Below, piece after piece: positions 16,575 to 37,731 of a stretch of DNA of 64,000 nt. Numbering within the stretch: the first letter of the stretch is position 1; the number at the start of each line of letters is the position of its first letter. The translations under genes were made by a program, and so were the position numbers. The notes under the pieces were generated by a model. It did no database searches and was not told the origin of the DNA. It saw only the letters and a program-made list of their open reading frames with translations. Source of the stretch: Kiloniella laminariae DSM 19542 (GTDB lineage Bacteria > Pseudomonadota > Alphaproteobacteria > Kiloniellales > Kiloniellaceae); assembly GCF_000374005.1 (NCBI RefSeq), contig NZ_KB893166.1:124001-188000 (forward strand), read 5' to 3'.

Positions 16575-16616
16575 TTGACTTCCATCGGCAAAACATCATT
16601 ATGGAATAAATATTCT
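16575..16616 (+). promoter_or_regulatory. Putative promoter and IolR-type operator for the sugar ABC operon
   Basis: TTGACT at 16575-16580 could serve as a -35 box, with ATTATG (16598-16603) as a poor -10 at 17 bp. The palindrome GGAATAAATATTCT at 16603-16616 overlaps the end of this promoter. It matches RGAAT-N4-ATTCY, the same pattern found in front of the RpiR gene and between iolG and iolC. The rest of the 342 bp gap 16339-16680 shows no gene. Confidence 0.65.
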
Positions 16617-16680
16617 AAATAATAAGAATAAAACAAAATCATTCCAATATGCGTTGATGCGGGCAACGGGGAATAAAAAA

Positions 16681-17508
16681 ATGCACAGAAAAATCGGAGC
16701 GTGCAGCTGGATTTTTGGTGACACAGACAGCCGGAAAATTGCACAGTTCTGGCAATCAGCCGGACTTGACGGTATTGAATACAATCCGGTGATGGATGTG
16801 AACAATGCGCGGGAAGCCAAGAGGATCTTTACAGATCATGGCCTCGCGATTTTTTCGCTGACACCTCCTGATGCCGACATCTCCATTGCAGATACCCTGA
16901 TCAGAAACAAAGCGGTTGATTGTTATTACTGGCTGATTGATTACGCCTGTCAAATTGGCGCGCCGGTTATTTCCTGCCATGGCCTGGTTGGGCGGATTGC
17001 TGCAAAAACGCATACGGCAGAGGAAGACCAGCTTCTTCTCTCCTCCCTCATATCTATTTGTAACCGGGCAAAGAGTTCAGGAATCTCTGTCGTATTCGAG
17101 GTCCTGAACCGATATGAAACCCATCAGATCAGAAACTACAAAGAAGCCAAGGCCCTGCTCTTGTCTGCCGGACAGGAGAATCTGGCCCTTTTGCTCGACT
17201 CCTATCACATGAATATAGAAGAACCCGATCCCGCCAGAAGCCTTCTTGAGGCCGGGACGTCACTGGGACTTTACCATGTGGCAGATTCTAACCGGGAAGC
17301 CCCCGGTCGGGGACATATAGATTTTGTTTCACAGTTCAGGGCACTTGACGATATTGCCTATCAGGGCCCCGTCATTCTTGAAATCAATGCGCCGGGACCT
17401 AATCCTTTCTCGGCAATAAAAGGCACGAACACTCAAGATATCGTTGCCTCCTACCTTTCAGAAAGCGTCTCTTACCTGAGGAAACTCATGAAAGATAAAG
17501 CCGCCTGA
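16681..17508 (+). CDS. Sugar phosphate isomerase/epimerase family TIM-barrel protein
   Basis: A 275 aa xylose-isomerase-like TIM barrel of the AP-endonuclease family 2 group. Metal and substrate segments visible are GACSWIFGD, VISCHGLVG, VFEVLNRYETHQI, LLLDSYHMNIEE, YHVADSNREAPGRGHIDF and ILEINAPGP. The His/Glu/Asp pattern fits a divalent-metal isomerase, epimerase or dehydratase such as IolE, IolH/IolI or DTE relatives. GGGGAA lies 8-10 bp before the ATG at 16681; a TTG/ATG 24-27 bp upstream is less well placed. It heads an operon with a CUT2 sugar ABC transporter and an oxidoreductase, under a putative IolR operator. Exact reaction unknown. Confidence 0.8.
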   Translation: MHRKIGACSWIFGDTDSRKIAQFWQSAGLDGIEYNPVMDVNNAREAKRIFTDHGLAIFSLTPPDADISIADTLIRNKAVDCYYWLIDYACQIGAPVISCHGLVGRIAAKTHTAEEDQLLLSSLISICNRAKSSGISVVFEVLNRYETHQIRNYKEAKALLLSAGQENLALLLDSYHMNIEEPDPARSLLEAGTSLGLYHVADSNREAPGRGHIDFVSQFRALDDIAYQGPVILEINAPGPNPFSAIKGTNTQDIVASYLSESVSYLRKLMKDKAA

Positions 17509-17589
17509 ACAAACCGCTTGCCTCAGACAGAACAGCAAAAATCATAACCGGGCCAAGCAAACCAGATATAACCCAACAGGGAGCAAGAC

Positions 17590-18528
17590 ATGTTACGTAC
17601 TTTCAAGAAAGCCATCGCAGCTTCTGCGATACTGGGTGCCGCAACCACCGCCGCATTTGCCCAGGATGTGAATATCATCGTTGTCAGTCATGGCCAGGCG
17701 AATGACCCTTTCTGGTCTGTCGTTAAAAACGGTGTCACCAAAGCTGCTGAAGACATGGAAGTCACCGTTGATTACCGGGCACCGGAAACCTTTGACATGG
17801 TTGCCATGAGCCAGTTGATCGAAGCGGCCGTCAATCAGGAACCAGATGGGCTTATTGTCTCCATTCCTGATGCAGATGCGCTCGGTGATGCGATCAGAAA
17901 AGCTGTTGCTGCAGGCATCCCAGTGATATCGATGAACTCCGGCTCCGATGTCTCCAAATCTCTCGGCGCCCTGCTTCATGTCGGGCAAGAGGAATTCGAC
18001 GCTGGTAAGGCCGCTGGTGAAAAACTCGCGGAACTTGGTGGCAAAAAAGGTATCTGCGTCAACCAGGAAGTCGGTAACGTATCGCTTGATCAGCGCTGCG
18101 CCGGTTTTACCGAAGGTTTTGGCGGTGCTGTAACCGTCCTGCCAACCTCCAATGACCCTGCAGAAATTTCCGCCAAGGTGCGTGCTGCAATCGATTCAGA
18201 TGAAGCCATTGATACAATCCTTGCTCTTGGAGCTGCAACGGCAGGCGAACCCTCAATCCTCGCCGTAGAAGAAGCCGGAAAACTTGGTTCAATCAATGTT
18301 GCGACCTTTGATATGTCTGCCGGTTTCCTGCAGTACATCGCAGATGGGAAAGCGGCCTTTGCCATTGACCAGCAGCAGTTTCTCCAGGGCTATCTTCCCG
18401 TATCATTCCTGGCTCTGAATGCCCGTTACGGTCTGATCCCGGGTGGCAATGTTCCCTCTGGTCCAAACCTGATCACCAAAGAAAAAGCGGCTCAGGTAGT
18501 TGACCTCAGTGCCGTTGGCATCCGTTAA
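17590..18528 (+). CDS. Sugar ABC transporter substrate-binding protein (RbsB-like)
   Basis: A 312 aa periplasmic binding protein of the ribose/inositol/galactose type (Peripla_BP_4). The signal peptide ends near AAFAQD (residues 20-26). The fold starts NIIVVSHGQANDPFWSVVKNG and has paired lobes with DGLIVSIPDA and GAATAGEPSILAVEE. It captures a sugar or polyol for the permease and ATPase just downstream. GGGAGC precedes the ATG. Given the upstream IolR-type site and the dehydrogenase at the operon end, myo- or scyllo-inositol or a related polyol is my preferred ligand, but the sequence does not prove it. Confidence 0.9.
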   Translation: MLRTFKKAIAASAILGAATTAAFAQDVNIIVVSHGQANDPFWSVVKNGVTKAAEDMEVTVDYRAPETFDMVAMSQLIEAAVNQEPDGLIVSIPDADALGDAIRKAVAAGIPVISMNSGSDVSKSLGALLHVGQEEFDAGKAAGEKLAELGGKKGICVNQEVGNVSLDQRCAGFTEGFGGAVTVLPTSNDPAEISAKVRAAIDSDEAIDTILALGAATAGEPSILAVEEAGKLGSINVATFDMSAGFLQYIADGKAAFAIDQQQFLQGYLPVSFLALNARYGLIPGGNVPSGPNLITKEKAAQVVDLSAVGIR

Positions 18529-18547
18529 TCTCGGTTAAGCCGAACAG

Positions 18548-18577
18548 AAAGGGGCTGTGAAAGCGGCCCCTTTTTCT
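18548..18577 (+). terminator. Intercistronic hairpin after the binding-protein gene
   Basis: Stem AAAGGGGCTG / CGGCCCCTTT (one wobble) followed by further T residues. Its place between binding protein and permease suggests partial termination or mRNA stabilisation, giving more binding protein than membrane components. Confidence 0.75.
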
Positions 18578-18628
18578 AATCTGTAACAGCGTTCCCGACA
18601 GAAGGAGCGACTGTGGGAGGAAATGTTA

Positions 18629-19762
18629 ATGCCCAAGGCAGCACAAAACGAACTTGATCAGGCTGTCACAGCCCATAGCGCTGATGAACGCGTTATCAAA
18701 GTCAGTCTGATCACCCGCCTGATGCGACGCCCGGAACTGGGTGCGCTCGCGGGCCTGATCCTTGTTACGGTCTTCTTTATGATCGCCGGAAAATCATCCA
18801 TGTTCACACTGGCCGGGATAATGAACTTCCTTGCCCCTGCCGCCCAACTCGGGATTCTGGCCATTGGTGCCGCCCTTTTGATGGTTGGTGGAGAGTTTGA
18901 TCTTTCTGTCGGCTCAATGGTTGCTTTTGCTGGACTGATCTTTGCCACGGCGCTGGTTGTTTTCCAGCTTCCTCTGGCCGTTTCAATCCTGATCACCTTT
19001 GCTTTTGCTGCTGCGATGGGTGCTATTAACGGGCAAATCGTGCTCAAGACAGGCCTCCCCTCTTTTATTGTCACACTCGCCTTTCTCTTTATTCTGCGTG
19101 GTTTGACCCTTGTCGGACTCAAGTGGGCAACAGGTGGCTCTACCCAGCTTCGCGGCGTCAAGGAAGCCATAGAAGGCTCTTCTCTGGCAGAATTTTTCTC
19201 TGGCGATGTTCTGGAAGGTCCCTTCCTCTGGTTTGCAGAAATGGGCCTGATTGACACCTTTAAAACCGGCTTGCCCAAGGTTACTGGTGTACCTGTTGAA
19301 ATCATCTGGTTTGTCGTCCTTGCGGGCGTAGCCACCTGGGTTCTTGTCCGCACTCGTTTCGGGAACTGGATTTTTGCTGCCGGAGGTGACGCTGCCTCTG
19401 CCCGCAACTCGGGCGTTCCGGTGAACCGGGTCAAGACCACCCTTTTCATTTTCACCGCCTGTGCGGCTGCACTGGTCGCCATCCTGACAGTTCTTGATGC
19501 CGGCTCTACCGATGCCCGCAGGGGATTTCAGAAGGAATTCGAAGCCATTATCGCCGCAGTGATCGGTGGCTGTCTGCTCACAGGTGGCTACGGTTCTGCC
19601 ATTGGTGCCTTCTTTGGCTCGATTATCTTCGGTATGGTCCTCATTGGACTGACCTACACCAATATCGATCAGGACTGGTACCTGGTTTTCCTCGGCGGCA
19701 TGCTTTTGATCGCGGTGCTGTTTAACAATTATGTCCGCAAACGTGTTACCGGGGAGCGATAA
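18629..19762 (+). CDS. Sugar ABC transporter permease (CUT2/RbsC-like)
   Basis: A 377 aa polytopic inner-membrane permease of the branched-chain/ribose type. About 8-10 hydrophobic segments are visible, including [18 protein letters not shown] and [29 protein letters not shown]. The last is the conserved CUT2 motif, and [25 protein letters not shown]-like sequence lies near the end. A hydrophilic insert of about 60 residues between central helices is longer than in RbsC. GGGAGG lies 8 bp before the ATG at 18629; an ATG 6 bp earlier is too close to it. It works with the flanking binding protein and ATPase. Confidence 0.9.
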
Positions 19763-19763
19763 G

Positions 19764-20549
19764 ATGACGAACACAACACCTCTGATTGAAGTCAATGATC
19801 TGGTCAAACACTTCGGACTGGTGATCGCTCTCAATGGCATTTCCCTCTCCGTCAGCCCCGGCGAGGTTCTTTGCCTGCTCGGTGATAACGGCGCTGGAAA
19901 ATCGACCCTGATCAAAACACTCTCGGGCGTCCACAAACCCACAGGCGGAGAGTTCAAGGTTGAGGGCAGACCCGTGAATTTCGACTCACCACGCGAAGCC
20001 CTTGATGCCGGGATTGCCACCGTCTACCAGGATCTGGCCATGATCCCTCTGATGTCGATCACCCGGAACTTCTTCATGGGCCGCGAGCCACTCAAGGGCT
20101 TTGGTCCCTTCAAGTCGATTGACTTTGAACAGGCAGACAGGGTTACCCGCGAAGAGATGCTCAAGATCGGCATTGATATCCGCGATCCGCAACAGGCGGT
20201 AGGCACGCTCTCCGGCGGCGAACGTCAATGCGTAGCCATTGCCCGCGCGGTCTACTTTGGTGCCAAGGTTCTCATTTTGGATGAACCCACCTCAGCCCTT
20301 GGTGTCGCCCAGACTTCCATGGTCCTGAAGTATATCCATCAGGTTCGGCAAAAAGGGCTTGCAGTGATATTCATCACCCACAACGTCCGTCATGCCTACG
20401 CTGTCGGCAACCGTTTTACTGTCCTCAACCGCGGGAAAACACTGGGCACCTACAGCAAAGACGAAATCGAAATTGATGCGCTGCAGAACCTGATGGCGGG
20501 TGGCAAGGAACTGCAGGAGCTTTCGGATGAACTCGGCGGCATGATCTGA
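19764..20549 (+). CDS. Sugar ABC transporter ATP-binding protein, single-domain
   Basis: A 261 aa ATPase with Walker [10 protein letters not shown], signature LSGGERQ and Walker [13 protein letters not shown]. Unlike RbsA, MglA and many inositol systems, it has one ATPase domain, not two, so it must homodimerise, as in FrcA-type systems. ATG at 19764 follows GGGGAG and lies 1 bp after the permease stop, so translation is coupled. It energises the CUT2 permease encoded immediately upstream. Confidence 0.92.
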
Positions 20550-20578
20550 GTAGAAGCAAACTTTTAGGAAATAATAAG

Positions 20579-21715
20579 ATGGACAGTATTGGGGTCGGCC
20601 TGATCGGAACAGGCTATATGGGCAAGTGCCATGCAACAGCCTGGGGCAGCGTCAAGGCCCGCTTTGCATCGGTCATCCGCCCTAGGCTAGAAGTTCTTTG
20701 TGATGCAAACGAAGCCGTTGCAAGGGATTGTGCCAGTGCTTTTGGTTTTGCATCCAGCACAACCAACTGGCACGAGCTCATCAATAACCCGGCGGTCGCT
20801 GTCATCTCGATTACCACGCCCAATGGCCTGCATCCGGAAATGGCTATTGCCGCGCTGAAAGCGGGAAAACATGTCTGGTGTGAAAAGCCAATGGGCCTGA
20901 CACTGGAACAGGCTGCAGCCATGACCGAAGCCGCCGGGAAGGCCGCCCTCTCGGGCATAAAAACCCAACTTGGTTATAACTATGTCCACAACCCCGCCAT
21001 CAGCCATGCAAAAAAACTGATCGCGGACGGCACCATTGGCCGGGTCATCCACTTCCGTGGACAAGTCGACGAAGATTATATGGCCGATCCCCAACTTCCC
21101 TGGACCTGGCGCTGTAAAATTGAAAGCGGCGGGCTGGGTACTCTTGGTGATCTGACCTGCCATTTGATCAGTCTGGCTCACTACCTGGTTGGTGATATCG
21201 CCAGAGTTCTCGCTGATATGGACACTGTTCACAAAGAACGCCCGCTGCCCGATAACAACTCCGGAGAAACCGCAACCGTTGAAAACGAGGACATGGCACA
21301 GGCCGTCATTCGTTTTAAAAACGGCACCAGTGGTCTGGTTAGCTCCAGCCGGGTGGCCTGGGGCCGCAAGAGCATGATCCGTATAGAGATCCACGGCGAC
21401 AAAGGCATGATTGTTTTTGACCAGGAGCGCATGAATGAGCTGGAACTCTTTCAAGCGACTGGCGACAAATCAACAAGAGGATATACCCGTATTCTTACCG
21501 GGCCTGAACACCCTCCCTACGGAGAGTACTGCCCCGCAGCCGGACATCAAATTGGCTTTAATGAGCTCAAGATCATCGAAGCGGCTCAATTTCTCAACGC
21601 CATCACGGGTAAAAAACCAAACTGGCCGGACTTTGCTGCAGGACAAAAAATCGAGCAGGTCATCCACAGCATTGCAACCTCGGCCCGCAAGGGGCAGTGG
21701 ATAGAAACAGTCTAA
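20579..21715 (+). CDS. Gfo/Idh/MocA family oxidoreductase (possible IolY-like)
   Basis: A 378 aa NAD(P)-dependent dehydrogenase. The Rossmann motif is GVGLIGTGYMGKCHA at the N-terminus, the family lysine motif is VWCEKPMG near residue 103, and the C-terminal alpha/beta domain is complete. Members oxidise sugars or cyclitols at a hydroxyl, for example inositol 2-dehydrogenase. It is the last gene of the ABC operon, 29 bp after the ATPase, with TAGGAA upstream of the ATG. It is clearly a different protein from the iolG-like gene at 36.7 kb. In S. meliloti an iolY oxidoreductase lies by iolR, and this gene is near the RpiR gene here, so IolY-like is possible. Confidence 0.87.
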   Translation: MDSIGVGLIGTGYMGKCHATAWGSVKARFASVIRPRLEVLCDANEAVARDCASAFGFASSTTNWHELINNPAVAVISITTPNGLHPEMAIAALKAGKHVWCEKPMGLTLEQAAAMTEAAGKAALSGIKTQLGYNYVHNPAISHAKKLIADGTIGRVIHFRGQVDEDYMADPQLPWTWRCKIESGGLGTLGDLTCHLISLAHYLVGDIARVLADMDTVHKERPLPDNNSGETATVENEDMAQAVIRFKNGTSGLVSSSRVAWGRKSMIRIEIHGDKGMIVFDQERMNELELFQATGDKSTRGYTRILTGPEHPPYGEYCPAAGHQIGFNELKIIEAAQFLNAITGKKPNWPDFAAGQKIEQVIHSIATSARKGQWIETV

Positions 21716-21835: not shown

Positions 21836-21863
21836 CTTGATATCATAAATGACGTACCTAGGT
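21836..21863 (+). promoter_or_regulatory. RpoH (sigma-32)-type promoter for hsp20
   Basis: CTTG at 21836-21839, a 17 bp spacer, then CCTAGGT at 21857-21863. This approximates the alphaproteobacterial RpoH pattern CTTG-N17-CyTATnT. It would start transcription near 21870, exactly at the first hairpin of the leader. Confidence 0.6.
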
Positions 21864-21869
21864 TTTAGC

Positions 21870-21965
21870 TATCGGGTGCTTAACCAAGGCCCGATATCAA
21901 AGACTTCCGGGGCTTATCCCGGGGTTCTAGATCGTGTTTACATTGCTTTTGGAGGATGTTCCATG
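21870..21965 (+). promoter_or_regulatory. ROSE-like RNA thermometer in the hsp20 leader
   Basis: The roughly 95 nt leader folds into successive hairpins: TATCGGG/CCCGATA (21870-21896), CCGGG/CCCGG (21907-21922), and a 3' element CATTGCTTTTGGAGGATG (21941-21958). The last contains the conserved ROSE core UUGCU opposite the GGAGGA ribosome site, with imperfect pairing that can melt on heating. Known ROSE elements sit upstream of hsp20 genes in alphaproteobacteria and block translation at low temperature. The call rests on motif and layout; I did not run a covariance search. Confidence 0.75.
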
Positions 21966-22457
21966 ACTAGGTACGACTTTACCCCCCTGTTCCATTCCAC
22001 CGTCGGCTTTGACCGTCTGGCGAGAATGATCGACTCAGCGCTGGAAACAGCGGACTCATCGCAGAATTACCCTCTGTACAACATAGAGGCCGATGGTGAG
22101 GACCACTATCGCATCAGTGTTGCTGCTGCCGGGTTTTCTGAAGAAGAGCTCACTATTGAAACAAGCGAGCAGGCCCTGACAATCACGGGGCAAAAATCCG
22201 GGAAAACACCAGAAACACTTTTCCTTCACCGAGGAATTGCAAATCGCGATTTTGTGAGGAAATTCCAGCTCGCTGACCACGTCAAAGTGACAAGCGCAAA
22301 TCTGGTAAACGGCCTTCTGACCATTGATCTTGTGCGGGAGATTCCTGAAGAGAAAAAACCGCGCATTATTGAGATCAAAAAATCTGCACCCAAAAGCCTT
22401 ATTGCCAAGGCAAAGCAGCTGATCGAAGGTGAAAAGAAAGACAAATCTGCCGCTTAA
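21963..22457 (+). CDS. Hsp20/IbpA-family small heat shock protein
   Basis: A 164 aa ATP-independent holdase that binds unfolding proteins. The start MTRYDFTPLFHSTVGFDRLARM is the classic IbpA/HspA opening. The alpha-crystallin domain runs from about YNIEADGEDHYRISVAAAGF to LTIDLVREIPEE, with the short GLL-type motif near NGLLTIDL. The C-terminal tail is lysine-rich. GGAGGATG lies 5 bp before the ATG at 21963; upstream in-frame codons are in the leader RNA. Control is probably double: an RpoH promoter and a ROSE thermometer. It sits between sugar-catabolism genes without an obvious link. Confidence 0.93.
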   Translation: MTRYDFTPLFHSTVGFDRLARMIDSALETADSSQNYPLYNIEADGEDHYRISVAAAGFSEEELTIETSEQALTITGQKSGKTPETLFLHRGIANRDFVRKFQLADHVKVTSANLVNGLLTIDLVREIPEEKKPRIIEIKKSAPKSLIAKAKQLIEGEKKDKSAA

Positions 22458-22463
22458 TCCACC

Positions 22464-23409: not shown

Positions 23410-23423
23410 GGAATAAAAATTCC
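23410..23423. promoter_or_regulatory. IolR-type operator upstream of the RpiR gene
   Basis: GGAATAAAAATTCC has GGAAT/ATTCC arms around AAAA and an exact GGAA-N6-TTCC layout. It is 53 bp before the RpiR ATG, and no other gene starts here, so it most likely mediates autoregulation. Confidence 0.75.
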
Positions 23424-24200: not shown

Positions 24201-24203
24201 TAT

Positions 24204-25858: not shown

Positions 25859-25890
25859 GGAAACACCTCACTCTACGAACAGAACAAAAC

Positions 25891-25919
25891 CGGGGTGACA
25901 CCGTAACGACGTCACCCCG
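25891..25919 (-). terminator. Intercistronic hairpin after the binding-protein gene
   Basis: Arms CGGGGTGAC / GTCACCCCG (9 bp) with an 11 nt loop. On the minus strand the stem is followed by GTTTTGTTC. It probably dampens expression of the permeases relative to the binding protein. Confidence 0.7.
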
Positions 25920-25931
25920 TTCTTAATGCAA

Positions 25932-29732: not shown

Positions 29733-29816
29733 CCGCATTATTTAATTTAGAGGACACATCCTGCAGCCCCAGTAATGACCGGAGCCGGAACATGCCATCA
29801 GGACAGGAATAATCCA

Positions 29817-30863
29817 GTGAACCACAAGAACATCACTTCGGCTGATGTCGCCAGAATGGCCGGAGTTTCCAGATCTACGGTTTCACGCTGCTTCAAGGCA
29901 GACAGCCGTATTTCAAAGAAGACCCGGGAACGTGTGATCGAAATCGCTGATCAGCTCGGCTATCAGGTCAACAAGATTGCACGCTCCATGATCACCCGTC
30001 AAAGCGATTTGGTCGGGCTGGTTTCTGCGGGTTTGCACGACCCTTTTGCCGTAGTTCTGGTCAATCAGCTCATCCAAAAACTGCAAAAAATGGGCCTCTA
30101 TCCGATTTTGCTGGACGCTTCCAACACGGCACAGCTTGAGCTTTCCATAAAAAAACTCGCCCAATACCAGGTTCGCAGCATCATCATCACTTCGGGAAGC
30201 CCCTCCTCCTCTATCGGGGCCGAATTCATTCGCCTCAATGTCCCCGTTATTTTGCTGAACCGTGCGGGACAGCTGGACGCGGCACATCTGATCAACTGCG
30301 ACAACAAAACCGGCAGCACCCTGGCCGCCAAAACTTTACTTGATGCCGGCCACCGACGGCTGGGCTTCGTCAACAGTAACAACAGCACTTACAGCGGCAA
30401 TTCCAGAGGTGCATTCTTTGAACAGGCCCTTGCCCTCAAACTGGCTTCCGGCGAGATCTCGTTACAGAGCATCTCCTGTCGCAGTTCCGATTACAAAGGC
30501 GGATTCCAGGCAGCTCTTGATCTTTTCCCCAATCCGAATTCTTTTTACCGAAACCTGTCGCCAACCGGGATTTACTGTGCCAACGACAATATCGCCCTGG
30601 GTTTCATGGATGCCCTGCGTTACGAGCTTGGCCTAAGAATTCCTGAGGACCTCTCAATTATCGGGTTTGATGATATCCCCCTGGCAGGACAACCCGCCTA
30701 CAGACTAACAACACTGCGCCAATGTCCCGCAGCCATAGCTGAGGCAACGGTGAAATGTATTCAGGGCATCCCCTCTTCAACAGATCCCTTGCGCATCTCC
30801 ATCCCCGTCGAGCTCATCACGCGCCAGAGTGTTGCAGCACCAGCGCACGAGAACCGGGGATAA
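29817..30863 (+). CDS. LacI-family transcriptional regulator (2)
   Basis: A 348 aa repressor with helix-turn-helix ITSADVARMAGVSRSTVSRCF, hinge YQVNKIARSMIT and an effector domain through SIPVELITRQSV. I choose the GTG at 29817 because AGGA sits 8 bp upstream and the family usually starts just before the helix-turn-helix; the ATG at 29775 has no ribosome site. It is divergent from LacI(1) and precedes the AfuABC-like operon in the same direction. Related operators (TTGyGCAAACG...) lie before this gene and before the transporter, so it probably controls both. Confidence 0.9.
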   Translation: MNHKNITSADVARMAGVSRSTVSRCFKADSRISKKTRERVIEIADQLGYQVNKIARSMITRQSDLVGLVSAGLHDPFAVVLVNQLIQKLQKMGLYPILLDASNTAQLELSIKKLAQYQVRSIIITSGSPSSSIGAEFIRLNVPVILLNRAGQLDAAHLINCDNKTGSTLAAKTLLDAGHRRLGFVNSNNSTYSGNSRGAFFEQALALKLASGEISLQSISCRSSDYKGGFQAALDLFPNPNSFYRNLSPTGIYCANDNIALGFMDALRYELGLRIPEDLSIIGFDDIPLAGQPAYRLTTLRQCPAAIAEATVKCIQGIPSSTDPLRISIPVELITRQSVAAPAHENRG

Positions 30864-30883: not shown

Positions 30884-30897
30884 AGAAATAAAATTCC
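30884..30897. promoter_or_regulatory. Weak IolR-like site upstream of the AfuABC-like operon
   Basis: AGAAATAAAATTCC matches GGAA-N6-TTCC with one mismatch (A for the first G). It is 204 bp upstream of the transporter start, inside an A/T-rich stretch, so chance occurrence is possible. Confidence 0.35.
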
Positions 30898-30992
30898 ATA
30901 AAAATTATTTTTGAAATTATTCTTTCATTTTTATTTTTACCTCTCTATCATCATCTAAAGCTCGATTGTGTGTGTGAGTTTTTTTGAGTTTT

Positions 30993-31012
30993 TTGTGCAA
31001 ACGTGTGCACAA
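30993..31012. promoter_or_regulatory. LacI-type operator before the AfuABC-like operon
   Basis: TTGTGCAAACGTGTGCACAA is a 20 bp palindrome with a single mismatch and a central CG. It lies 76 bp before the binding-protein start, shares TTGyGCAAACG with the site upstream of LacI(2), and is probably its operator. Confidence 0.8.
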
Positions 31013-31087
31013 TCACAGTACAGCCAAGATATAATCGAGACTCAATCGGAAAAATCCGAATAAACGACCAAACGGGAGGTCAAGGGT

Positions 31088-32119
31088 ATGAAGACAAAAC
31101 AGTTTGCTTTCGGTATCGCCGTTGCCACAGCTTGCGCGCTGACCGGCACTCCTTCACAGGCGGCAGAAAAACTCACAGTCCTCTGCGCCGCAGACGATCA
31201 GTGGTGTAATCTGATGGAATCGACATTTGAAAAAGAAACCGGTGTCGATGTTTCAATGGTCCGCAAAAGCTCGGGTGAAATCTTTGCCCAGATCAAGGCA
31301 GAATCACGAAACCCTAAAGTGGACATCTGGTGGGGTGGCACAGGCGATCCTCATCTGCAGGCCGCTGCCGAAGATCTGACGGTTGAATACAAATCGCCCC
31401 AACTGGGTTCTCTGCTCGACTGGGCTCAAAACCAGGCAAAAGATGGAAGTTATAAAACCGTTGGTATCTACGCTGGTGCTCTTGGCATCGGCTATAACGA
31501 AGAATTGCTCAAATCCAAAGGTCTGCCCGTTCCAAAGTGCTGGGCTGATCTGACCAACCCTGCCTACAAAGGTGAAATCCAGATGGCCAACCCGAATTCC
31601 TCGGGGACGGCCTACACCGCCTTGGCAACCGTGGTTCAGTTGTTCGGAGAAGAAAAGGGGTTTGAATTCCTTGCCGGACTGCACGGTAACATCAACCAGT
31701 ACACCAAATCAGGTTCTGCTCCTGTCAAGGCTGCTGCAAGAGGAGAGACCACCCTCGCGATTACCTTCATGCACGACATGGTCAAACAGGTCAAAAAAGG
31801 CTTCCCGATCAAAGTCGTCGCTCCTTGCGAAGGCACCGGCTATGAAGTTGGATCCATGAGTATCGTTAAAGGAGCCAGAAATCCTGAAACAGCTCAGAAG
31901 TTTGCCGAATTTGCCTTGCGGGCCGACATCCAGTCCCTGGCTGCGGATGCAGAAGCCTATCAGGTTCCCTCCAACGCCAGCGCCACCGTCCCTGAAGAAG
32001 CGCCAAAACTGACTGACATCAAATTGATCGAGTATGATTTCGCCACCTATGGCTCCAGCGACACCCGCAAGCGTCTGCTGAAGCGCTGGGATGACGAAAT
32101 CAAGTCCCTGCCCCGCTAA
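31088..32119 (+). CDS. AfuA-like ABC transporter substrate-binding protein
   Basis: A 343 aa periplasmic binding protein with a signal peptide ending near SQAAEK (residues 23-28). The mature start LTVLCAADDQWC carries a Cys33/Cys40 pair, and the body has KVDIWWGGTGDPHLQAA, FMHDMV (His229-Asp230) and CEGTGYEVGS. Class II binding proteins of this type were named for iron, but the AfuA branch is known to bind hexose phosphates; as I recall the His-Asp pair and the EGTGYE segment belong to that branch. The phosphatase at the end of the same operon supports a phosphorylated ligand. GGGAGG precedes the ATG. Confidence 0.87.
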   Translation: MKTKQFAFGIAVATACALTGTPSQAAEKLTVLCAADDQWCNLMESTFEKETGVDVSMVRKSSGEIFAQIKAESRNPKVDIWWGGTGDPHLQAAAEDLTVEYKSPQLGSLLDWAQNQAKDGSYKTVGIYAGALGIGYNEELLKSKGLPVPKCWADLTNPAYKGEIQMANPNSSGTAYTALATVVQLFGEEKGFEFLAGLHGNINQYTKSGSAPVKAAARGETTLAITFMHDMVKQVKKGFPIKVVAPCEGTGYEVGSMSIVKGARNPETAQKFAEFALRADIQSLAADAEAYQVPSNASATVPEEAPKLTDIKLIEYDFATYGSSDTRKRLLKRWDDEIKSLPR

Positions 32120-32128: not shown

Positions 32129-32154
32129 CTATGGGGGCCGAAGGAGGAAAATTC

Positions 32155-34374
32155 GTGCGTGCTGCTTTCTTGCCATGGCTGATACTTGGCTGGGTCGGCT
32201 TTGCTGTCCTGCCGTGGTATCTGGTCGAAGACGGGTTCTGGGCTTTTCAATGGTTGATAGACGGCTATCCGCTGGATAGTGACTATGCACCGGCTCTGGT
32301 TCAGGCTGCTTTGGGAAATGTGTGGTTATTCCCTTTGCTGCTTCCTCTTCTGGCCCCCCTTTTTATTACCCGTAGAACCAAGACAGACCCGGATTATGCC
32401 CGGGTTCTGATCCTGTCCGGCGGCTTTGGTCTGGCCTATCTTCTGGCACAGGGTTTCATTGTCGGGATTGGCGGCTGGGAATACGCCTTTCTGGAAAACC
32501 TGTTTGGCCCGATGGACAGCCGCCAATACGGCATGGGCTATGGCGCCCTGTTAACGGCAGCATCTTTTCTTGTTCTCTTTACCAGCGGTCTTGCCGCTGC
32601 GGGCTGCCTGCGGGGGGATGTTTTTGTCACCTCTGCGATCGGTATTATTATTGCCCTGGTCGCAACATTCGTCTTCCTGCCCGTCGGCAAGGTCCTTATA
32701 TCCGCTTTTATCAGCGAAACCGGCACCTATGCCCTCGCTGCCTTTGGCGAAAATTTCTTTACCCGAAAAATCTGGGGGCTTGCCTGCGTCACCACAACGG
32801 CTTCTTGCGGCGTGGCCTGGAACTCTCTTTTCCTTGCTCTGGCCACAGGGTTTTCCACCACCTTGCTGGGCCTTGCCTTTGCCCTGGTGGCAACCCGTAC
32901 TGATTTTCGCTGGAAAAAATCCTTAAGAACGCTCACGGTTCTGCCGATTATCACCCCGCCTTTTGTCATCGGCCTTGCTCTGATTTTGTTATTTGGCCGC
33001 GCAGGAACAGTTACTCAATTCGCATCGGATCTACTCGGCATAGAACCCGGACGTTGGCTCTATGGTCTACCGGGGATCTGGCTGGCCCAGACACTCTCCT
33101 TTACCCCCATTGCCTTTCTCGTGCTGATCGGCGTGGTCGAGGGGGTCAGCCCCTCAATGGAAGAGGCATCGCAAACTCTTGGTGCCAGCCGTTGGAACAC
33201 CTTCAAACGGGTCTCTCTGCCCCTGATGCGTCCCGGTCTCGCCAATGCCTTCCTGATCGGCTTCATCGAAAGCATGGCAGATTTTGGGAATCCGATGGTG
33301 CTGGGGGGGAATTATGAAGTTCTCTCAACCGAGATTTTCTTTGCTATTGTCGGCGCACAAAACGATCAAGGGCGCGCTGCGGTTCTCGCAATCCTGCTGC
33401 TTTGTTTCACCCTCAGCGCCTTCTTTGCACAGCGGGTCTGGCTCGGCAAAAAATCCTACACCACCGTAGCAGGAAAGGCGGAATCTGGGGCGCATGCTGG
33501 TATGAACCCCTTACTGCGCAACATATGCCTCGGCGTCACCATTCCCTGGGCAGCCTTTACCTTGGCCATATATGGAATGATCCTGTTTGGCGGATTTGTC
33601 ATCAGCTGGGGGCGTGACCACAGCCTGACCCTTCAGCACTACAGCAATGCTTTTTCTGTTGGCTGGGCCGAACATGGCCTGCATTGGGAAGGTACAGCCT
33701 GGGACTCTTTTTGGACCACCATTACCATTTCGGCTATTGCCGCGCCGCTAACGGCTGCACTGGGTCTTCTCACCAGCTTTTTACTGGTTCGTCAGAAATT
33801 CCGGGGCAAGAACCTGTTCGAATTTGGCACCATGCTCAGCTTTGCCATTCCGGGCACTGTTATTGGCGTGAGCTATATTCTGGCCTTTAACGTTCCCCCT
33901 TTTGAACTGACGGGAACCGGCGTTATTCTGGTACTCTGTTTTATCTTCCGTAACATGCCCGTTGGTGTTCGGGGGGGAATTGCGGCCATGACCCAGCTGG
34001 ACAAAAGCCTCGATGAAGCTTCCCTGACCCTGGGCGCTAACAGCCTGACCACCTTGCGCCGGGTTATTCTTCCCCTGCTGCGCCCAGCTATCATTGCGGC
34101 ACTGGTCTATAGTTTCGTCCGGGCCATCACCTCCGTCAGTGCCGTTATCTTCCTCGTCAGCGCCGACCATAACATGGCGACCTCCTATATCATTGGTCTG
34201 GTCGAGAACGGCCAGTACGGCATTGCTATTGCCTATTCATCCGTCCTTATCATCGTCATGCTTCTGGCAATATTTCTGGTTCAGAAAGTCGTTGGCGAGC
34301 GGAAGTTACGGCGGGACAACCGGCTTGAAGCCGTGTCCGGGAAATCAAATTCTCTCAAGGAGAAACAAGCATGA
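32155..34374 (+). CDS. ABC transporter permease, fused two-domain (AfuB/FbpB-like)
   Basis: A 739 aa inner-membrane permease made of two MetI-type halves in one chain, as in FbpB and AfuB. Each half has a coupling loop: MEEASQTLGASRWNTFKRVSLPLMRPG (about residue 340) and LDEASLTLGANSLTTLRRVILPLLRPA (about residue 630). An extra hydrophobic N-terminal region precedes the first half. I prefer the GTG at 32155, which has a near-perfect GGAGGA 8 bp upstream; an ATG at 32131 adds 8 residues. The end overlaps the ATPase start by 4 bp (ATGA). Confidence 0.9.
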   Translation: MRAAFLPWLILGWVGFAVLPWYLVEDGFWAFQWLIDGYPLDSDYAPALVQAALGNVWLFPLLLPLLAPLFITRRTKTDPDYARVLILSGGFGLAYLLAQGFIVGIGGWEYAFLENLFGPMDSRQYGMGYGALLTAASFLVLFTSGLAAAGCLRGDVFVTSAIGIIIALVATFVFLPVGKVLISAFISETGTYALAAFGENFFTRKIWGLACVTTTASCGVAWNSLFLALATGFSTTLLGLAFALVATRTDFRWKKSLRTLTVLPIITPPFVIGLALILLFGRAGTVTQFASDLLGIEPGRWLYGLPGIWLAQTLSFTPIAFLVLIGVVEGVSPSMEEASQTLGASRWNTFKRVSLPLMRPGLANAFLIGFIESMADFGNPMVLGGNYEVLSTEIFFAIVGAQNDQGRAAVLAILLLCFTLSAFFAQRVWLGKKSYTTVAGKAESGAHAGMNPLLRNICLGVTIPWAAFTLAIYGMILFGGFVISWGRDHSLTLQHYSNAFSVGWAEHGLHWEGTAWDSFWTTITISAIAAPLTAALGLLTSFLLVRQKFRGKNLFEFGTMLSFAIPGTVIGVSYILAFNVPPFELTGTGVILVLCFIFRNMPVGVRGGIAAMTQLDKSLDEASLTLGANSLTTLRRVILPLLRPAIIAALVYSFVRAITSVSAVIFLVSADHNMATSYIIGLVENGQYGIAIAYSSVLIIVMLLAIFLVQKVVGERKLRRDNRLEAVSGKSNSLKEKQA

Positions 34375-35444
34375 GCCTGCACCTTCGGCCGGGATCTGTT
34401 GTCTTTGAAAATATCACCAAAAAATATGGGGTGGTCACGGCAATCGACGATGTGTCCTTTTCTATAGAACCCGGGCATCTGGTTACTCTGCTCGGACCAA
34501 GTGGCTGTGGAAAGACCACTACCCTGCGGATGATTGCAGGTCTGGAACATCCAACCAGTGGCCGGGTTCTGATTGGTGGCAAGGATGTCACCAGCCTGCC
34601 CGCTACCGACCGTGATGTCAGTATGGTTTTTCAGTCCTACGCCCTCTTCCCCCACATGAGCGTCGCTGAAAACGTCGGCTATGGCCTCAGTGTTTCCGGA
34701 TTGGGCAAACAGGAAACCAGCGAACGGGTTGAAGAAGGCCTTGAGCTGGTTGGTCTTGCTGGTTATGGCCAGCGACTGCCCAGTGAACTTTCCGGAGGCC
34801 AGCAACAGCGTGTCGCCGTGGCGAGGGCACTTGTGCTTGAACCCGAGGTTCTGCTGCTGGACGAACCTCTGTCCAATCTGGATGCAAAATTGCGCCGCAA
34901 GGTCCGCGAAGAAATCCGCGAGCTGCAACAGAAACTGGGCCTGACCGCCGTCTATGTCACCCACGACCAGGAAGAGGCACTCGCTGTCTCGGACCGGATT
35001 ATCGTCATGAACCGTTCGGTGATTGCCCAGGAAGGTACTCCGCGTGAGCTTTATGAAAAACCTGCCTCCAGTTTCATCGCTGATTTCATTGGCGATGCCA
35101 ACCTGGTCGAAGGCGAAATAGTCGATGTTCACAGCCAGAATGAAGCCACCGTACGCATTGCTTCACTCCAGTGCAATCTACCTAACCGGGGACTATCCGT
35201 GGGGCCGGTCAAAATCGCCATACGCCCTGATTCCGTGATCCTTGAAAAGGCCTCTCCCGAACTCACGGGAATAAAGGGGAACATTATTCATGCCACCTAT
35301 CTCGGCAACCAAATTCAGTACACCATCGACAGTGGCTTGGGTGAACTCTTTGTCGTCGATCATCGGATTGACCGGGCCATTGCCGCGGGCAGTGATATCT
35401 CCATGACTTTCGCAAGCAGAGGCATGTATCTCCTCGCCTCTTGA
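34371..35444 (+). CDS. ABC transporter ATP-binding protein (AfuC/FbpC-like)
   Basis: A 357 aa ATPase with Walker A GPSGCGKTT, Q-loop YALFPHM, signature LSGGQQQRVAVARAL, Walker B LLLDEPLSNLD and H-loop VTHDQEEAL. A C-terminal TOBE domain begins after residue 240. It energises the fused permease, with which it shares a 4 bp overlap. Sequence alone does not separate iron from sugar-phosphate or phosphonate transport; operon context favours an organophosphate. Confidence 0.92.
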   Translation: MSLHLRPGSVVFENITKKYGVVTAIDDVSFSIEPGHLVTLLGPSGCGKTTTLRMIAGLEHPTSGRVLIGGKDVTSLPATDRDVSMVFQSYALFPHMSVAENVGYGLSVSGLGKQETSERVEEGLELVGLAGYGQRLPSELSGGQQQRVAVARALVLEPEVLLLDEPLSNLDAKLRRKVREEIRELQQKLGLTAVYVTHDQEEALAVSDRIIVMNRSVIAQEGTPRELYEKPASSFIADFIGDANLVEGEIVDVHSQNEATVRIASLQCNLPNRGLSVGPVKIAIRPDSVILEKASPELTGIKGNIIHATYLGNQIQYTIDSGLGELFVVDHRIDRAIAAGSDISMTFASRGMYLLAS

Positions 35445-35468: not shown

Positions 35469-36281
35469 GTGTATCTTGACGCTCATGACATTACCCCTGA
35501 ACTGGAACAGCGCTTTGAACATGCCCGGAAAGTTATCCGGGCTGCTGGCGAAAAAGCCCTGGACTACTTTAACCGCCGGGATGAATTGACCATTGAAACC
35601 AAAGCCGACCCACAGGATGTTGTCAGTATTGCCGACAAGGATGTGGAAACCATTATCCGGGGCATGACACGGCAACTCTTCCCCGACGACGGCTTTATGG
35701 GGGAAGAACACGGCCAGGAAGTCGGAAAAAATGATTTTCTCTGGGTGATTGACCCTATTGATGGTACGGCCTGTTTCCTGACAGGCATGCGCCCCTGGTG
35801 TATTTCTGTGGCCCTGATGAAAGGCAATAAAATTGCCGCGGGTCTGGTTTATGATCCCAATACCGATGAGCTTTTCTCTGCTCTTGCCGGACAGGGCACC
35901 TATTTGAACGATGCCCCTGTTCACAGTCAGAACTCAAAATCCGTAACCGAAGGCGTTATGGGCGTCGGCATTTCCCACCGTGTGCCTGCCGCTGAACTTT
36001 TGCCTTTCCTTGACAAACTTTTGTCATCCGGGGGCATGTTCATTCGCAATGGTTCCTGTGCGCTCATGATGTCTTATGTCGCAGCAGGCCGTCTGATTGG
36101 ATATTTTGAGCCCCATATTAATGGCTGGGACTGTCTCGCCGGAATTATCCTCATCAGAGAAGCTGGCGGCTGGTGTTCGCCTTTTCTTGATAACGATGGT
36201 CTGAACAAGGGTAACCCCATCCTTGCTTCTGCCAGCGGGGTTGCTGCAGATCTGCGCGTGATGACGGGTTTGACCGCCTAG
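35469..36281 (+). CDS. Inositol monophosphatase family protein
   Basis: A 270 aa Mg-dependent phosphatase. Metal-site motifs are GEEHG (residues 78-82), DPIDGT (95-100) and the C-terminal GWDCLAGIILIREAGG; all acidic ligands are present. The family includes inositol-1-phosphatase, histidinol-phosphatase and bisphosphate nucleotidase. It begins with GTG at 35469, 8 bp after AGGA, and lies 24 bp past the ATPase, so it belongs to the transporter operon. Placed between an AfuABC-like importer and iolG/iolCDEB, it most simply removes phosphate from an imported polyol phosphate. Confidence 0.88.
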   Translation: MYLDAHDITPELEQRFEHARKVIRAAGEKALDYFNRRDELTIETKADPQDVVSIADKDVETIIRGMTRQLFPDDGFMGEEHGQEVGKNDFLWVIDPIDGTACFLTGMRPWCISVALMKGNKIAAGLVYDPNTDELFSALAGQGTYLNDAPVHSQNSKSVTEGVMGVGISHRVPAAELLPFLDKLLSSGGMFIRNGSCALMMSYVAAGRLIGYFEPHINGWDCLAGIILIREAGGWCSPFLDNDGLNKGNPILASASGVAADLRVMTGLTA

Positions 36282-36387: not shown

Positions 36388-36642
36388 ATGGGTATTGAGA
36401 GCCTTATTATTTTCCTCCTTGTTGGAGCCATTGCAGGTTTTCTGGCAGGAAAGCTGGTATCAGGTTTCGGGTTTGGCCTGGTCGGCAATATTGTTGTCGG
36501 CGTGATTGGTGCTTTTATTGCCGGATTTATCTTCCCAACCCTTGGACTGTCCCTTGGGTCAGGCTTCCTGGCTGCGATCATTCATTCGACCATTGGTGCG
36601 GTTATTCTTCTGTTTGTAATCAAGCTGGTCAAACGCGCGTAA
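36388..36642 (+). CDS. GlsB/YeaQ/YmgE family stress-response membrane protein
   Basis: An 84 aa very hydrophobic, glycine-rich protein with three short transmembrane segments: LIIFLLVGAIAGFLAGKLV, GNIVVGVIGAFIAGFIF and AAIIHSTIGAVILLFVIKLV. This is the transglycosylase-associated protein fold, named only by association. Acid or general stress induction is known in enterobacteria; the role is unclear. ACGGAG precedes the ATG. It stands alone between the phosphatase and iolG, with a strong terminator after it. Confidence 0.88.
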   Translation: MGIESLIIFLLVGAIAGFLAGKLVSGFGFGLVGNIVVGVIGAFIAGFIFPTLGLSLGSGFLAAIIHSTIGAVILLFVIKLVKRA

Positions 36643-36672
36643 AATTCCAGTGCTCACATCTAAACAACAGAA

Positions 36673-36704
36673 TAAGGGAGAGCAAACCAGATTGCTCTCC
36701 CTTA
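36673..36704. terminator. Hairpin terminator between the GlsB-like gene and iolG
   Basis: Perfect 13 bp stem TAAGGGAGAGCAA / TTGCTCTCCCTTA with a 6 nt loop, followed by GTTTTG on the plus strand. It serves the two convergent genes. Confidence 0.85.
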
Positions 36705-36716
36705 GTTTTGCGTTTC

Positions 36717-37703
36717 TTAAAGCACGACAGGTAAACCAGTCTTCAGAGATTCTGTCGCTGCATCAGCCAGAACCTGGGCCATCAGGCCATCATACCCGCT
36801 TGGCGCCGGAGCATTCTTTGCTTCGACGACATCGATAAAGGCATTTAACTCATCCCGATATGCTGCACTGTAGCGCTCCAGGAAAAAGTGTTGAACAGGA
36901 TCAGCCCTGAAACCTTCTGACGTCGCGACTTCCACTGTTGTTTCATGCACGTTTCCAGCCCGCAGCATGCCCTTTGATCCATGAACCTCGATCCGTTGAT
37001 CATAGCCATAGGTCGCCCGGCGAGAGTTGGAAATCTGACAGACCTTGCCGCTGGCCGTTTTCAGCACCGCAATCGCAGTATCAACATCACCTGCTGCACC
37101 AATCTCCGGATCAACAAGTGCAGAACCTGTCGCATAGACGGAAACCGGTTCCTCTCCAAGAAGAAAGCGCGCCATGTCCAGGTCGTGGATCATCATATCC
37201 CGGAAGAGACCACCCGAGCGTTCAATATAGGAAACCGGAGGGGGGGCAGGATCGCGAGACTGGATGGTCACGATCTCCACCTCCCCGATTTCCCCGGCAG
37301 CAAGACGTTTTTGCAACGCAGAGAAGTTGGGATCAAAGCGACGGTTGAAACCGATCATCAGCGGCTGGCCACTGGCATCAACAACCTTGAGACACTCCCG
37401 GATACGCTCGGCGGCCATATCAACCGGTTTTTCACAGAAAACCGCCTTTCCAGCCCGCACCCCCGCTTCGATAAAACCGGCATGGGTATCCGTGGAAGAG
37501 GCAACAAAAACTGCCTGGACATCCTCACGTGCAAGCATTTCCTCAACCGAAGCAACCACCGCAGCTGTCTTGTCGGCTAAAGTCTGTGCTGCATCCGCAA
37601 ACACATCCGACACCGTCACAAGTCTCGCCCGAGGGTTTGCCATAATATTCTCGGCATGGAGCTGGCCAATACGGCCTGCCCCGATCAATCCAAAACCAAT
37701 CAA
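36717..37703 (-). CDS. iolG: Inositol 2-dehydrogenase
   Basis: This Gfo/Idh/MocA enzyme oxidises myo-inositol to 2-keto-myo-inositol with NAD, the first step of the pathway. The protein has the Rossmann motif IGFGLIGAGRIGQLHA, the lysine motif AVFCEKPVD and the segment FNRRFDPNFSALQKRL typical of Idh. I choose the TTG at 37703, with GGAGG 5 bp upstream; the frame is open to 37715 but that start would overlap the ribosome site. The gene is divergent from iolC, and an IolR-type palindrome sits just before its ribosome site. Length (about 328 aa) is normal. Confidence 0.92.
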   Translation of the reverse strand: MIGFGLIGAGRIGQLHAENIMANPRARLVTVSDVFADAAQTLADKTAAVVASVEEMLAREDVQAVFVASSTDTHAGFIEAGVRAGKAVFCEKPVDMAAERIRECLKVVDASGQPLMIGFNRRFDPNFSALQKRLAAGEIGEVEIVTIQSRDPAPPPVSYIERSGGLFRDMMIHDLDMARFLLGEEPVSVYATGSALVDPEIGAAGDVDTAIAVLKTASGKVCQISNSRRATYGYDQRIEVHGSKGMLRAGNVHETTVEVATSEGFRADPVQHFFLERYSAAYRDELNAFIDVVEAKNAPAPSGYDGLMAQVLADAATESLKTGLPVVL

Positions 37704-37717
37704 CACAACCTCCAAAA

Positions 37718-37731
37718 AGAATATATATTCT
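37718..37731. promoter_or_regulatory. IolR-type operator in the iolG/iolC divergent region
   Basis: AGAATATATATTCT is a perfect 14 bp palindrome matching RGAAT-N4-ATTCY. It lies between the probable iolG promoter and the iolG ribosome site and would block transcription. A weaker related sequence begins near 37748. Confidence 0.7.

What the first reader, a model, noticed from the sequence alone, without database searches (positions are those of the whole stretch)
16603..37731. One operator pattern links an RpiR gene, a sugar ABC operon and iolG/iolC
Palindromes GGAATAAATATTCT (16603), GGAATAAAAATTCC (23410) and AGAATATATATTCT (37718) all fit RGAAT-N4-ATTCY and each lies in front of a gene start. 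A fourth weaker copy is at 30884. The pattern agrees with GGAA-N6-TTCC, which I recall as the S. meliloti IolR motif. This predicts a regulon spread over 21 kb with RpiR as IolR and places an uncharacterised transporter inside it.
Basis: partly seen in the sequence, partly recalled or inferred. Interest (0 to 1): 0.75.

Follow-up and report, generated by a model that had tools for sequence, protein, structure and literature searches.

The report
IolR inositol regulon, inositol-phosphate branch
A marine bacterium appears to use one repressor to control its inositol-eating genes from several places in 21 kb, including a sugar-phosphate importer and phosphatase that may let it feed on inositol phosphates.

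Summary
The three palindromes and the weaker fourth copy are as described. Counting the bare pattern shows no excess, but comparative tests support the sites. A matrix from 76 sites of other genera ranks 16603, 30884, 23410, 37718 and an unreported fifth, 37748, as the window's top five positions. The sites recur before the orthologous genes in other Kiloniella. Outside Kiloniella the motif precedes this RpiR in 41 of 49 named loci with iolB/C/D/E nearby and 0 of 10 without. The RpiR is very probably IolR and the 16654-21715 transporter resembles the known IbpA-IatA-IatP importer; this core is the published alphaproteobacterial regulon (PMC2597717) in a new genus. Two points go further. The 'weak' site precedes an AfuABC sugar-phosphate importer with an inositol-monophosphatase-family enzyme; AfuA loci hold iolC/D/E in 8 of 27 other genomes (0 of 20 control stretches), suggesting inositol-phosphate uptake. 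And IolR sites often come as pairs 29-30 bp apart. Binding, effector and substrate are untested.

The parts
16603..16616 (.). IolR operator in front of the inositol-type ABC operon
   Evidence: 26.1 bits, rank 1 of window with the foreign matrix; top place in the genome scan; 3 of 3 Kiloniella rows with this operon, the window's own included
16632..16645 (.). candidate weak partner site, 29 bp from 16603
   Evidence: 3.2 bits, top 0.06% of window positions
16654..17508 (+). TIM-barrel sugar epimerase/isomerase-like protein, first gene of the operon
   Evidence: NCBIfam matches below cut-offs: 5-keto-L-gluconate epimerase IolO 128.7 of 300 bits
17590..18528 (+). substrate-binding protein, IbpA/rhizopine-binding type
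   Evidence: NF052284 342 bits, below cut-off 420; nearest solved chain 4ru1, CUT2 family
18623..19762 (+). ABC permease (IatP-like)
   Evidence: sugar ABC permease families, below cut-offs
19731..20549 (+). ABC ATPase (IatA-like, single domain)
   Evidence: sugar ABC ATPase families, below cut-offs, matching their first half
20579..21715 (+). Gfo/Idh/MocA-type dehydrogenase
   Evidence: NF052479 338 bits, below cut-off 650; iolG 132 bits
22524..23357 (-). RpiR/MurR regulator, predicted IolR
   Evidence: HTH_6 and SIS domains; iol neighbours in relatives; tree
23410..23423 (.). IolR operator in front of rpiR (autoregulation)
   Evidence: 18.2 bits, rank 3; genome scan; 7 of 8 Kiloniella rpiR promoters
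30884..30897 (.). IolR operator in front of afuABC-imp
   Evidence: 22.3 bits, rank 2; genome scan; 6 of 6 other Kiloniella rows with afuA
30913..30926 (.). weak partner site 29 bp from 30884
   Evidence: 5.2 bits, top 0.03%; lies in a block identical in 7 species apart from two columns
30993..31012 (.). LacI-type operator, second control of afuABC
   Evidence: centre intact in 5 Kiloniella with the adjacent lacI, changed in 2 without
29775..30863 (+). LacI-family regulator next to afuA
31088..32119 (+). AfuA-type sugar-phosphate-binding protein
   Evidence: 4r72 group 7.7e-91; ligand residues kept
32131..34374 (+). AfuB-type double permease
   Evidence: PhnU2 family 282.6 bits, below cut-off
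34371..35444 (+). AfuC-type ATPase
   Evidence: PhnT2 and ferric-type ATPase families, below cut-offs
35469..36281 (+). inositol-monophosphatase-family phosphatase
   Evidence: HisN 142.6 and IMPase 137.5 bits, both below cut-offs; DPIDGT and WDCLAG in the translation
36717..37715 (-). iolG inositol 2-dehydrogenase
   Evidence: TIGR04380 451.5 bits, above cut-off
37718..37731 (.). IolR operator 1 of the divergent iolG/iolC promoter region
   Evidence: 17.8 bits, rank 4; 8 of 8 Kiloniella rows; not listed by the genome scan
37748..37761 (.). IolR operator 2, exactly 30 bp from operator 1
   Evidence: 15.4 bits, rank 5; same 30-bp pair in all 8 Kiloniella rows; conserved columns
37829..39799 (+). 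iolC kinase fused to the aldolase
   Evidence: NF047869 760 bits, above cut-off
39833..41695 (+). iolD
   Evidence: TIGR04377 969 bits, above cut-off
41701..42597 (+). iolE
   Evidence: TIGR04379 374 bits, above cut-off
42618..43424 (+). iolB
   Evidence: TIGR04378 348 bits, above cut-off

Best explanation
The RpiR protein at 22524-23357 is IolR. Without inositol it binds RGAA-N6-TTCY palindromes in front of its targets: the IbpA-type inositol ABC operon, its own gene, the afuABC-imp operon, and the divergent iolG and iolCDEB genes. It probably binds as dimers or a tetramer to a strong site and a second, often weaker, site 29-30 bp away, on about the same face of the helix. When inositol is broken down, a phosphorylated intermediate (2-deoxy-5-keto-gluconate 6-phosphate, made by IolC) binds the SIS domain and releases repression. 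The regulon opens two routes in: free inositol by the CUT2-type transporter, and a phosphorylated inositol by AfuABC, dephosphorylated by the IMPase-family enzyme and handed to IolG. Shown here: sites, their conservation, gene families, linkage, spacing. Inferred: binding, effector, repression, and the AfuABC substrate. The confidence below is for the IolR regulon; the phosphate route is scored in the section on the most novel reading.
For: Foreign-matrix ranks 1-5 in the window; 16603, 23410 and 30884 are the three best places in a genome scan with a model of the same foreign sites. Motif upstream of the orthologues in Kiloniella rows: rpiR 7 of 8, iolC 8 of 8, iolG 8 of 8, epimerase operon 3 of 3, afuA 6 of 6, shuffle means 0.2-0.4. 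Outside Kiloniella: rpiR 52 of 78, iolC 22 of 68, ibpA 27 of 46, iolG 5 of 44, against shuffle means 2.1, 0.9, 1.4, 0.6. Motif tracks iol linkage, 41 of 49 against 0 of 10. Three plasmid loci outside the training set carry a site just before rpiR at 17.4, 25.5 and 26.4 bits. Pair spacing peaks at 29-30 bp. HTH and SIS domains. AfuA loci hold an IMPase-family gene in 14 of 27 and iolC/D/E in 8 of 27 other genomes; 0 and 0 of 20 control stretches. AfuA ligand residues kept. In a sister genus (L215) operators lie before afuA, before rpiR and between iolG and iolC.
Against: The bare pattern is at or near background in window and genome. Of 32 places with the pattern RGAATWNATATTCY in nine Kiloniella genomes, 14 are these operators and 18 lie elsewhere. 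One Kiloniella (L027) has no site before rpiR, although there rpiR follows iolG on the same strand. Neither MMSDH (iolA-type) gene of this genome has a good site upstream. 8 of 49 iol-linked rpiR genes elsewhere lack the motif. 19 of 27 AfuA genomes show no iolC/D/E in the stretches fetched, and the ligand-pocket letters do not separate iol-linked from other AfuA proteins. The two Bosea loci have no site directly before afuA. The genome scan scored 150 of 1309 first-look candidates and did not list 37718. In Ensifer aridi iolC was not induced in an iolR mutant (PMC8877191), so plain repression may not be the whole story. Relatives are not independent, so p-values are optimistic.
Confidence: 0.88

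Rival explanations
1. The palindromes are chance AT-rich sequences, and the shared pattern is a coincidence of reading.
For: Counts of the pattern in window and genome are near expectation.
Against: Matrix ranks from foreign genera, conserved positions in other species, and coupling to iol linkage.
Confidence: 0.03
2. The sites are bound by another regulator (for example a LacI or another RpiR), not by the adjacent RpiR.
For: Two LacI genes lie in the region and the genome has three other HTH_6 (RpiR-type) genes. No binding data.
Against: Motif and iol-linked members of this RpiR lineage go together, 41 of 49 against 0 of 10 unlinked; the LacI next to afuA has its own, different operator whose centre is changed where that lacI is absent; deletion of Caulobacter iolR derepresses promoters that carry the motif (PMC2597717).
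Confidence: 0.07
3. AfuABC-imp imports an ordinary hexose or heptose phosphate, as in Actinobacillus, and its IolR site only reflects shared induction in the same niche.
For: AfuA binds glucose-6-phosphate and fructose-6-phosphate (PMC4546632); the His205/Asp206/Glu229 set is kept; 19 of 27 AfuA genomes show no iolC/D/E nearby.
Against: Recurrent junctions with IMPase and iol genes. Ring-side positions Thr11, Gly36 and Ile186 are Asp, Ser, Ser in the window protein, but similar changes occur in AfuA proteins without iol neighbours, so this is weak.
Confidence: 0.35
4. The fourth site belongs only to the LacI control of afuABC and is not an IolR site.
For: A LacI-type operator is present at 30993.
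Against: The IolR-type site stays in the two species that lack that lacI gene and have a changed LacI-operator centre (L052, L055).
Confidence: 0.06

Closest known systems
Alphaproteobacterial myo-inositol module with RpiR-type IolR (Caulobacter crescentus, Sinorhizobium meliloti; PMC2597717, passages read)
   Same: Regulator IolR controlling ibpA, idhA and iolC promoters, GGAA-N6-TTCC palindrome in front of transporter, idhA and iolC, iolCDEB genes. Autoregulation is reported for Ensifer aridi (PMC8877191, passages).
   Different: Here A is allowed at the first G, iolA lacks a visible site, and an AfuABC-imp operon is added. Caulobacter iolR itself was not inositol-regulated, whereas rpiR here carries a site.
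Salmonella IolR with high- and low-affinity sites (PMC5349611, passages read)
   Same: Two sites per promoter and evidence of an oligomer; a Salmonella plasmid record annotated iolR is 42% identical to this RpiR.
   Different: No sequence motif turned up in the passages I saw; the 29-30 bp spacing found here is a candidate for those two sites. Not tested on Salmonella sequence.
AfuABC hexose-phosphate transporter of Actinobacillus (PMC4546632, passages read)
   Same: Binding protein, double permease, ATPase; sugar and phosphate ligands kept.
   Different: Linked to IMPase and iol genes; some ring-side positions differ; proposed substrate is an inositol phosphate.
InoEFGK transporter in the inositol regulon of Thermotoga (PMC3750489, passages read)
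   Same: An ABC transporter inside an inositol regulon. By recall KEGG names it an inositol-phosphate importer.
   Different: Different components by name; its IolR is a ROK-family protein.

Membership tests
RpiR-type IolR regulon | Regulator with RpiR HTH and SIS domains | tested here: met
   PF01418 43.9 bits and PF01380 64.9 bits, both above cut-off
RpiR-type IolR regulon | Regulator gene lies with iol genes in relatives | tested here: met
   49 of 59 named non-Kiloniella loci hold iolB/C/D/E; gene orders; annotated plasmid loci
RpiR-type IolR regulon | GGAA-N6-TTCC palindrome upstream of iolC, iolG/idhA and the transporter | tested here: met
   Foreign matrix ranks 1-5. The strict form GGAA-N6-TTCC is met only by 23410 of the five; I collected foreign sites with A or G allowed at the first position, of which 33% had A
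RpiR-type IolR regulon | iolA in the regulon | tested here: inconclusive
   Two MMSDH genes above cut-off lack a good upstream site; three other Kiloniella have a site between mocR and mmsA
RpiR-type IolR regulon | Regulator binds the operators and is released by a phosphorylated inositol catabolite | not testable with these tools
   needs gel shift and effector assays
AfuABC sugar-phosphate transporter | His205, Asp206, Glu229 sugar ligands and Ser37, Thr150 phosphate ligands | tested here: met
   positions mapped by me from the alignment
AfuABC sugar-phosphate transporter | Binds glucose-6-phosphate with high affinity | not testable with these tools
   no binding assay
Inositol monophosphatase | IMPase-superfamily metal motifs | tested here: met
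   GEE, DPIDGT and WDCLAG in the translation (the motifs are recalled)
Inositol monophosphatase | Passes the inositol-1-monophosphatase or HisN equivalog cut-off | tested here: not met
   137.5 of 332 and 142.6 of 275 bits; so a superfamily member of unknown exact substrate, not filed as an IMPase proper

The most novel reading that the evidence does not exclude
IolR in Kiloniella and related Alphaproteobacteria governs a second way into inositol catabolism: an AfuABC-type importer brings in inositol monophosphate (or a closely similar cyclitol phosphate), an IMPase-family enzyme removes the phosphate, and IolG continues. IolR acts through operator pairs fixed at 29-30 bp, which would be the sequence basis of the high- and low-affinity sites measured in Salmonella.
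Probability: 0.45. Interest if true: 0.68.

Novelty: new variant of a known kind. Interest (0 to 1): 0.55.

Why it matters
The core shows that a published alphaproteobacterial regulon extends to Kiloniella, with a matrix built from sites that also come from Beta- and Gammaproteobacteria. If the AfuABC-imp branch is right, transporters often annotated as iron or phosphonate importers include an uptake route for inositol phosphates, an abundant form of organic phosphorus (recalled), directly tied to carbon catabolism. The 29-30 bp pairing gives a simple, testable rule for how an RpiR-type repressor reads its promoters.

Tried and rejected
Counting the bare pattern was rejected as a test because it is at or near background. 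A search for a beta-propeller phytase (PF02333) in this genome found none, so a home-made source of inositol phosphates from that family is not supported; other phytase families were not searched. Looking for AfuA pocket letters that separate iol-linked from other members failed: Kiloniella has Asp at the Thr11 position, most of the closer relatives Gln, and the same letters occur outside iol loci. The extra sites before mocR/mmsA in three Kiloniella were not counted as iolA operators, because in L189 the site lies 53 bp before mocR but about 320 bp from mmsA.

A first count of motif against linkage (41 of 49 against 0 of 13) took in three short unnamed loci where linkage could not be seen. 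It was repeated on the 66 named loci L050-L115; the 7 Kiloniella ones are left out (they duplicate unnamed copies), leaving 59 rows, 49 linked and 10 not. Rows dropped when upstream stretches were collected: hits starting beyond residue 40 of the query, under 33% identity (35% for rpiR), with under 60 bases of upstream DNA, or with the same last 200 bases as another row. Of the AfuA matches, one partial match (G233, contig 9) was not fetched.

Literature: searches listed no paper that by title or abstract start links AfuABC to inositol uptake or states a 29-30 bp IolR pairing; only the passages named here were read, and most subscription papers are not held. PMC11065229 and PMC9611204 mention afuA and inositol separately (passages). 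The second lists a predicted myo-inositol 1-phosphate ABC transporter in Rhizobium etli bacteroids, and in minimal medium an afuA (RHE_RS10880) and an inositol monophosphatase (RHE_RS10865) whose close locus tags suggest neighbours; I did not check that genome.


Full report
What was checked. The window is G000:C33:124001-188000 of a 4.44 Mb genome. Its nearest named relative by the RpiR protein is Kiloniella laminariae (96%), so the organism is a Kiloniella or very near one. The three palindromes and the fourth copy are at the stated places.

Is it more than chance? Counting the pattern is not informative. With up to one mismatch the window holds 11 matches against 10 expected; the genome holds 22 exact matches with a reversed-pattern control of 7 and about 15 expected by base composition. 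The AT-centred form is found exactly three times in the genome, all here (about 0.8 expected), but this form was chosen after seeing the sites. With one mismatch allowed the count is 40 against a control of 33. In nine Kiloniella genomes the pattern RGAATWNATATTCY occurs at 32 places: 14 are operators of the iol genes, 18 lie elsewhere (places compared). I therefore relied on tests with relatives.

Independent matrix. From stretches of 350 bases before and 40 after the starts of rpiR, iolC, iolG and ibpA relatives outside Kiloniella I took every distinct RGAA-N6-TTCY site (76 sites) and built a 20-position matrix. The core letters are imposed by that pattern; the flanks and centre are learned. 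The window's positions then rank 16603 (26.1 bits), 30884 (22.3), 23410 (18.2), 37718 (17.8) and 37748 (15.4), with the next at 9.2. The window has 12 RGAA-N6-TTCY cores, and the four sites are the best four of these 12, the other eight scoring 9.2 or less. A sequence-only model of the same 76 sites run over the whole genome gave 16603, 23410 and 30884 as the three best places, then C34:233861. That scan scored 150 of 1309 first-look candidates and did not list 37718, which scores 9.3 bits in the window scan with filters off.

Conservation. In Kiloniella rows the RGAA-N6-TTCY motif lies upstream of rpiR in 7 of 8, iolC 8 of 8, iolG 8 of 8 (the same intergenic regions), the 16654-type operon 3 of 3, and afuA 6 of 6; upstream of ibpA, which is second in its operon here, 0 of 3. 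The window genome is among the 8 and the 3; the six afuA rows are other genomes. Shuffles averaged 0.2 to 0.4 per group, at most 2. The exception at rpiR is L027, where rpiR follows iolG on the same strand and the iolG/iolC region carries the pair. Outside Kiloniella the figures are rpiR 52 of 78, iolC 22 of 68, ibpA 27 of 46, iolG 5 of 44, with shuffle means 2.1, 0.9, 1.4 and 0.6. Among the 59 named non-Kiloniella loci, the motif is present upstream of rpiR in 41 of 49 that also hold iolB, C, D or E, and in 0 of 10 that do not (relatedness makes the p-value optimistic). Three plasmid loci not used in training, from Azospirillum, Asticcacaulis and Rhizobium daejeonense, have a site directly before rpiR and annotated iol genes around it. 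A tree of 88 rows places the window protein with the other Kiloniella copies at 100/100; deeper forks are partly open.

The fourth site and its operon. In the alignment of seven Kiloniella afuA promoters the site is kept, and 29 bp further a block TTGAAAT-N2-TTCTTTCAT is identical in all seven apart from the two N. The downstream LacI-type operator at 30993 keeps its centre in the five whose afuA has the lacI gene beside it and is changed in the two that lack it, while the IolR-type site stays in all seven. So afuABC appears to answer to both a local LacI and IolR. AfuA matches the Actinobacillus hexose-phosphate-binding protein (E 7.7e-91). Of 18 ligand-pocket positions taken from the two AfuA papers (passages), 14 are the same, among them Ser37, Tyr103, Thr150, His205, Asp206, Glu229 and Gln269; Ser9, Thr11, Gly36 and Ile186 become Ala, Asp, Ser and Ser. 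Similar changes occur in AfuA proteins without iol neighbours.

Does AfuABC travel with inositol genes? In 385 Alphaproteobacteria sampled across the class, 29 have an AfuA at E <= 1e-60 (at most five candidates scored per genome). I fetched 37 stretches from the 27 that are not Kiloniella. 14 of 27 genomes have an IMPase-family gene (at least 35% identity) and 8 of 27 have iolC, D or E (at least 45%); 7 genomes have both, in one of them (G423) on different stretches. Twenty control stretches taken elsewhere in 12 of these genomes have 0 and 0 at these cut-offs; one (L265) has an IMPase-family match at 34%. Some genomes gave several test stretches and some stretches are cut by contig ends, so the comparison is rough. 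In G244 and in two Bosea loci the genes run iolG, imp, afuA, afuB, afuC on one strand beside iolR. In the sister genus G011 (L215) operators lie about 180 bp before afuA, before rpiR, and between iolG and iolC. No IolR site was seen directly before iolG or afuA in G244 or Bosea; the site there is nearest rpiR. The simplest reading is import of a phosphorylated inositol followed by dephosphorylation; hexose-phosphate import remains possible.

Operator pairs. Spacings between sites of at least 8 bits in the same upstream stretch pile up at 29 bp (15 pairs) and 30 bp (21 pairs); no other spacing exceeds 3 (shared divergent regions are counted more than once). Around 84 strong non-Kiloniella sites, a partner of at least 3 bits occurs at 29 bp in 25% and at 30 bp in 21%, then 4% at 31 bp, with a median of zero over offsets 15-75. 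In Kiloniella (26 strong sites) the figures are 58% at 30 and 19% at 29. So a pair is common, not universal. The iolG/iolC pair 37718 + 37748 is 30 bp apart in all 8 Kiloniella rows. In the window, 16603 and 30884 have weak partners at +29 (3.2 and 5.2 bits, in the top 0.06% and 0.03% of positions); 23410 has none at 29-30. Salmonella IolR was measured to have a high- and a low-affinity site in iol promoters and to form oligomers (PMC5349611, passages). [quoted passage not shown] coli MurR tetramer is proposed to bridge two adjacent sites (PMC12713135, passages). I infer the same here.

Mechanism. In the S. meliloti model, inducer release comes from 2-deoxy-5-keto-gluconate 6-phosphate (as cited in PMC8877191, passages; the original paper is not held). 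The same paper reports that iolR transcription rose in an Ensifer aridi iolR mutant but iolC was not induced there, so the control may be more complex. Promoter-like hexamers lie next to or over the sites at 16575-16602 and 37700-37771, which fits repression, but these are consensus matches only. None was found at rpiR, and at afuA the only one lies at 31006-31035, downstream of the IolR site.

Known or new. The core is the regulon that Boutte et al. described in Caulobacter, S. meliloti and others (PMC2597717, passages). Not found in print in the listed searches of an open-access library are the AfuABC-imp branch under an IolR operator and the 29-30 bp pairing.

Noticed in passing
30993-31012: LacI-type operator TTGTGCAAACGTGTGCACAA before afuA; its centre is changed in the two Kiloniella loci without the adjacent lacI gene.
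   Followed up: yes
   Followed up: partly
23466-28326: A second ABC system with an MBL-fold hydrolase, next to a LacI gene; as a whole set seen only here and in K. laminariae (L050) among the Kiloniella loci. Bosea L079 and L115 have related abcS and abcA genes near afuABC.
   Followed up: no
21849-22457: HSP20/IbpA-type small heat-shock protein between the inositol operon and rpiR; the name IbpA clashes with the inositol-binding protein IbpA.
   Followed up: no
about 36388-36640: Short open frame on the plus strand that looks like a GlsB/YeaQ-type small membrane protein between imp and iolG (translation, label recalled).
   Followed up: no
12726-16338: PehA-like phosphoester hydrolase, nucleoside hydrolase and ribokinase-like genes upstream of the inositol operon, all below NCBIfam cut-offs.
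   Followed up: no
L226, L227, L230, L231, L234, L235: Some AfuABC loci carry two or more binding-protein genes around one permease gene, hinting at two substrates for one transporter.
   Followed up: no
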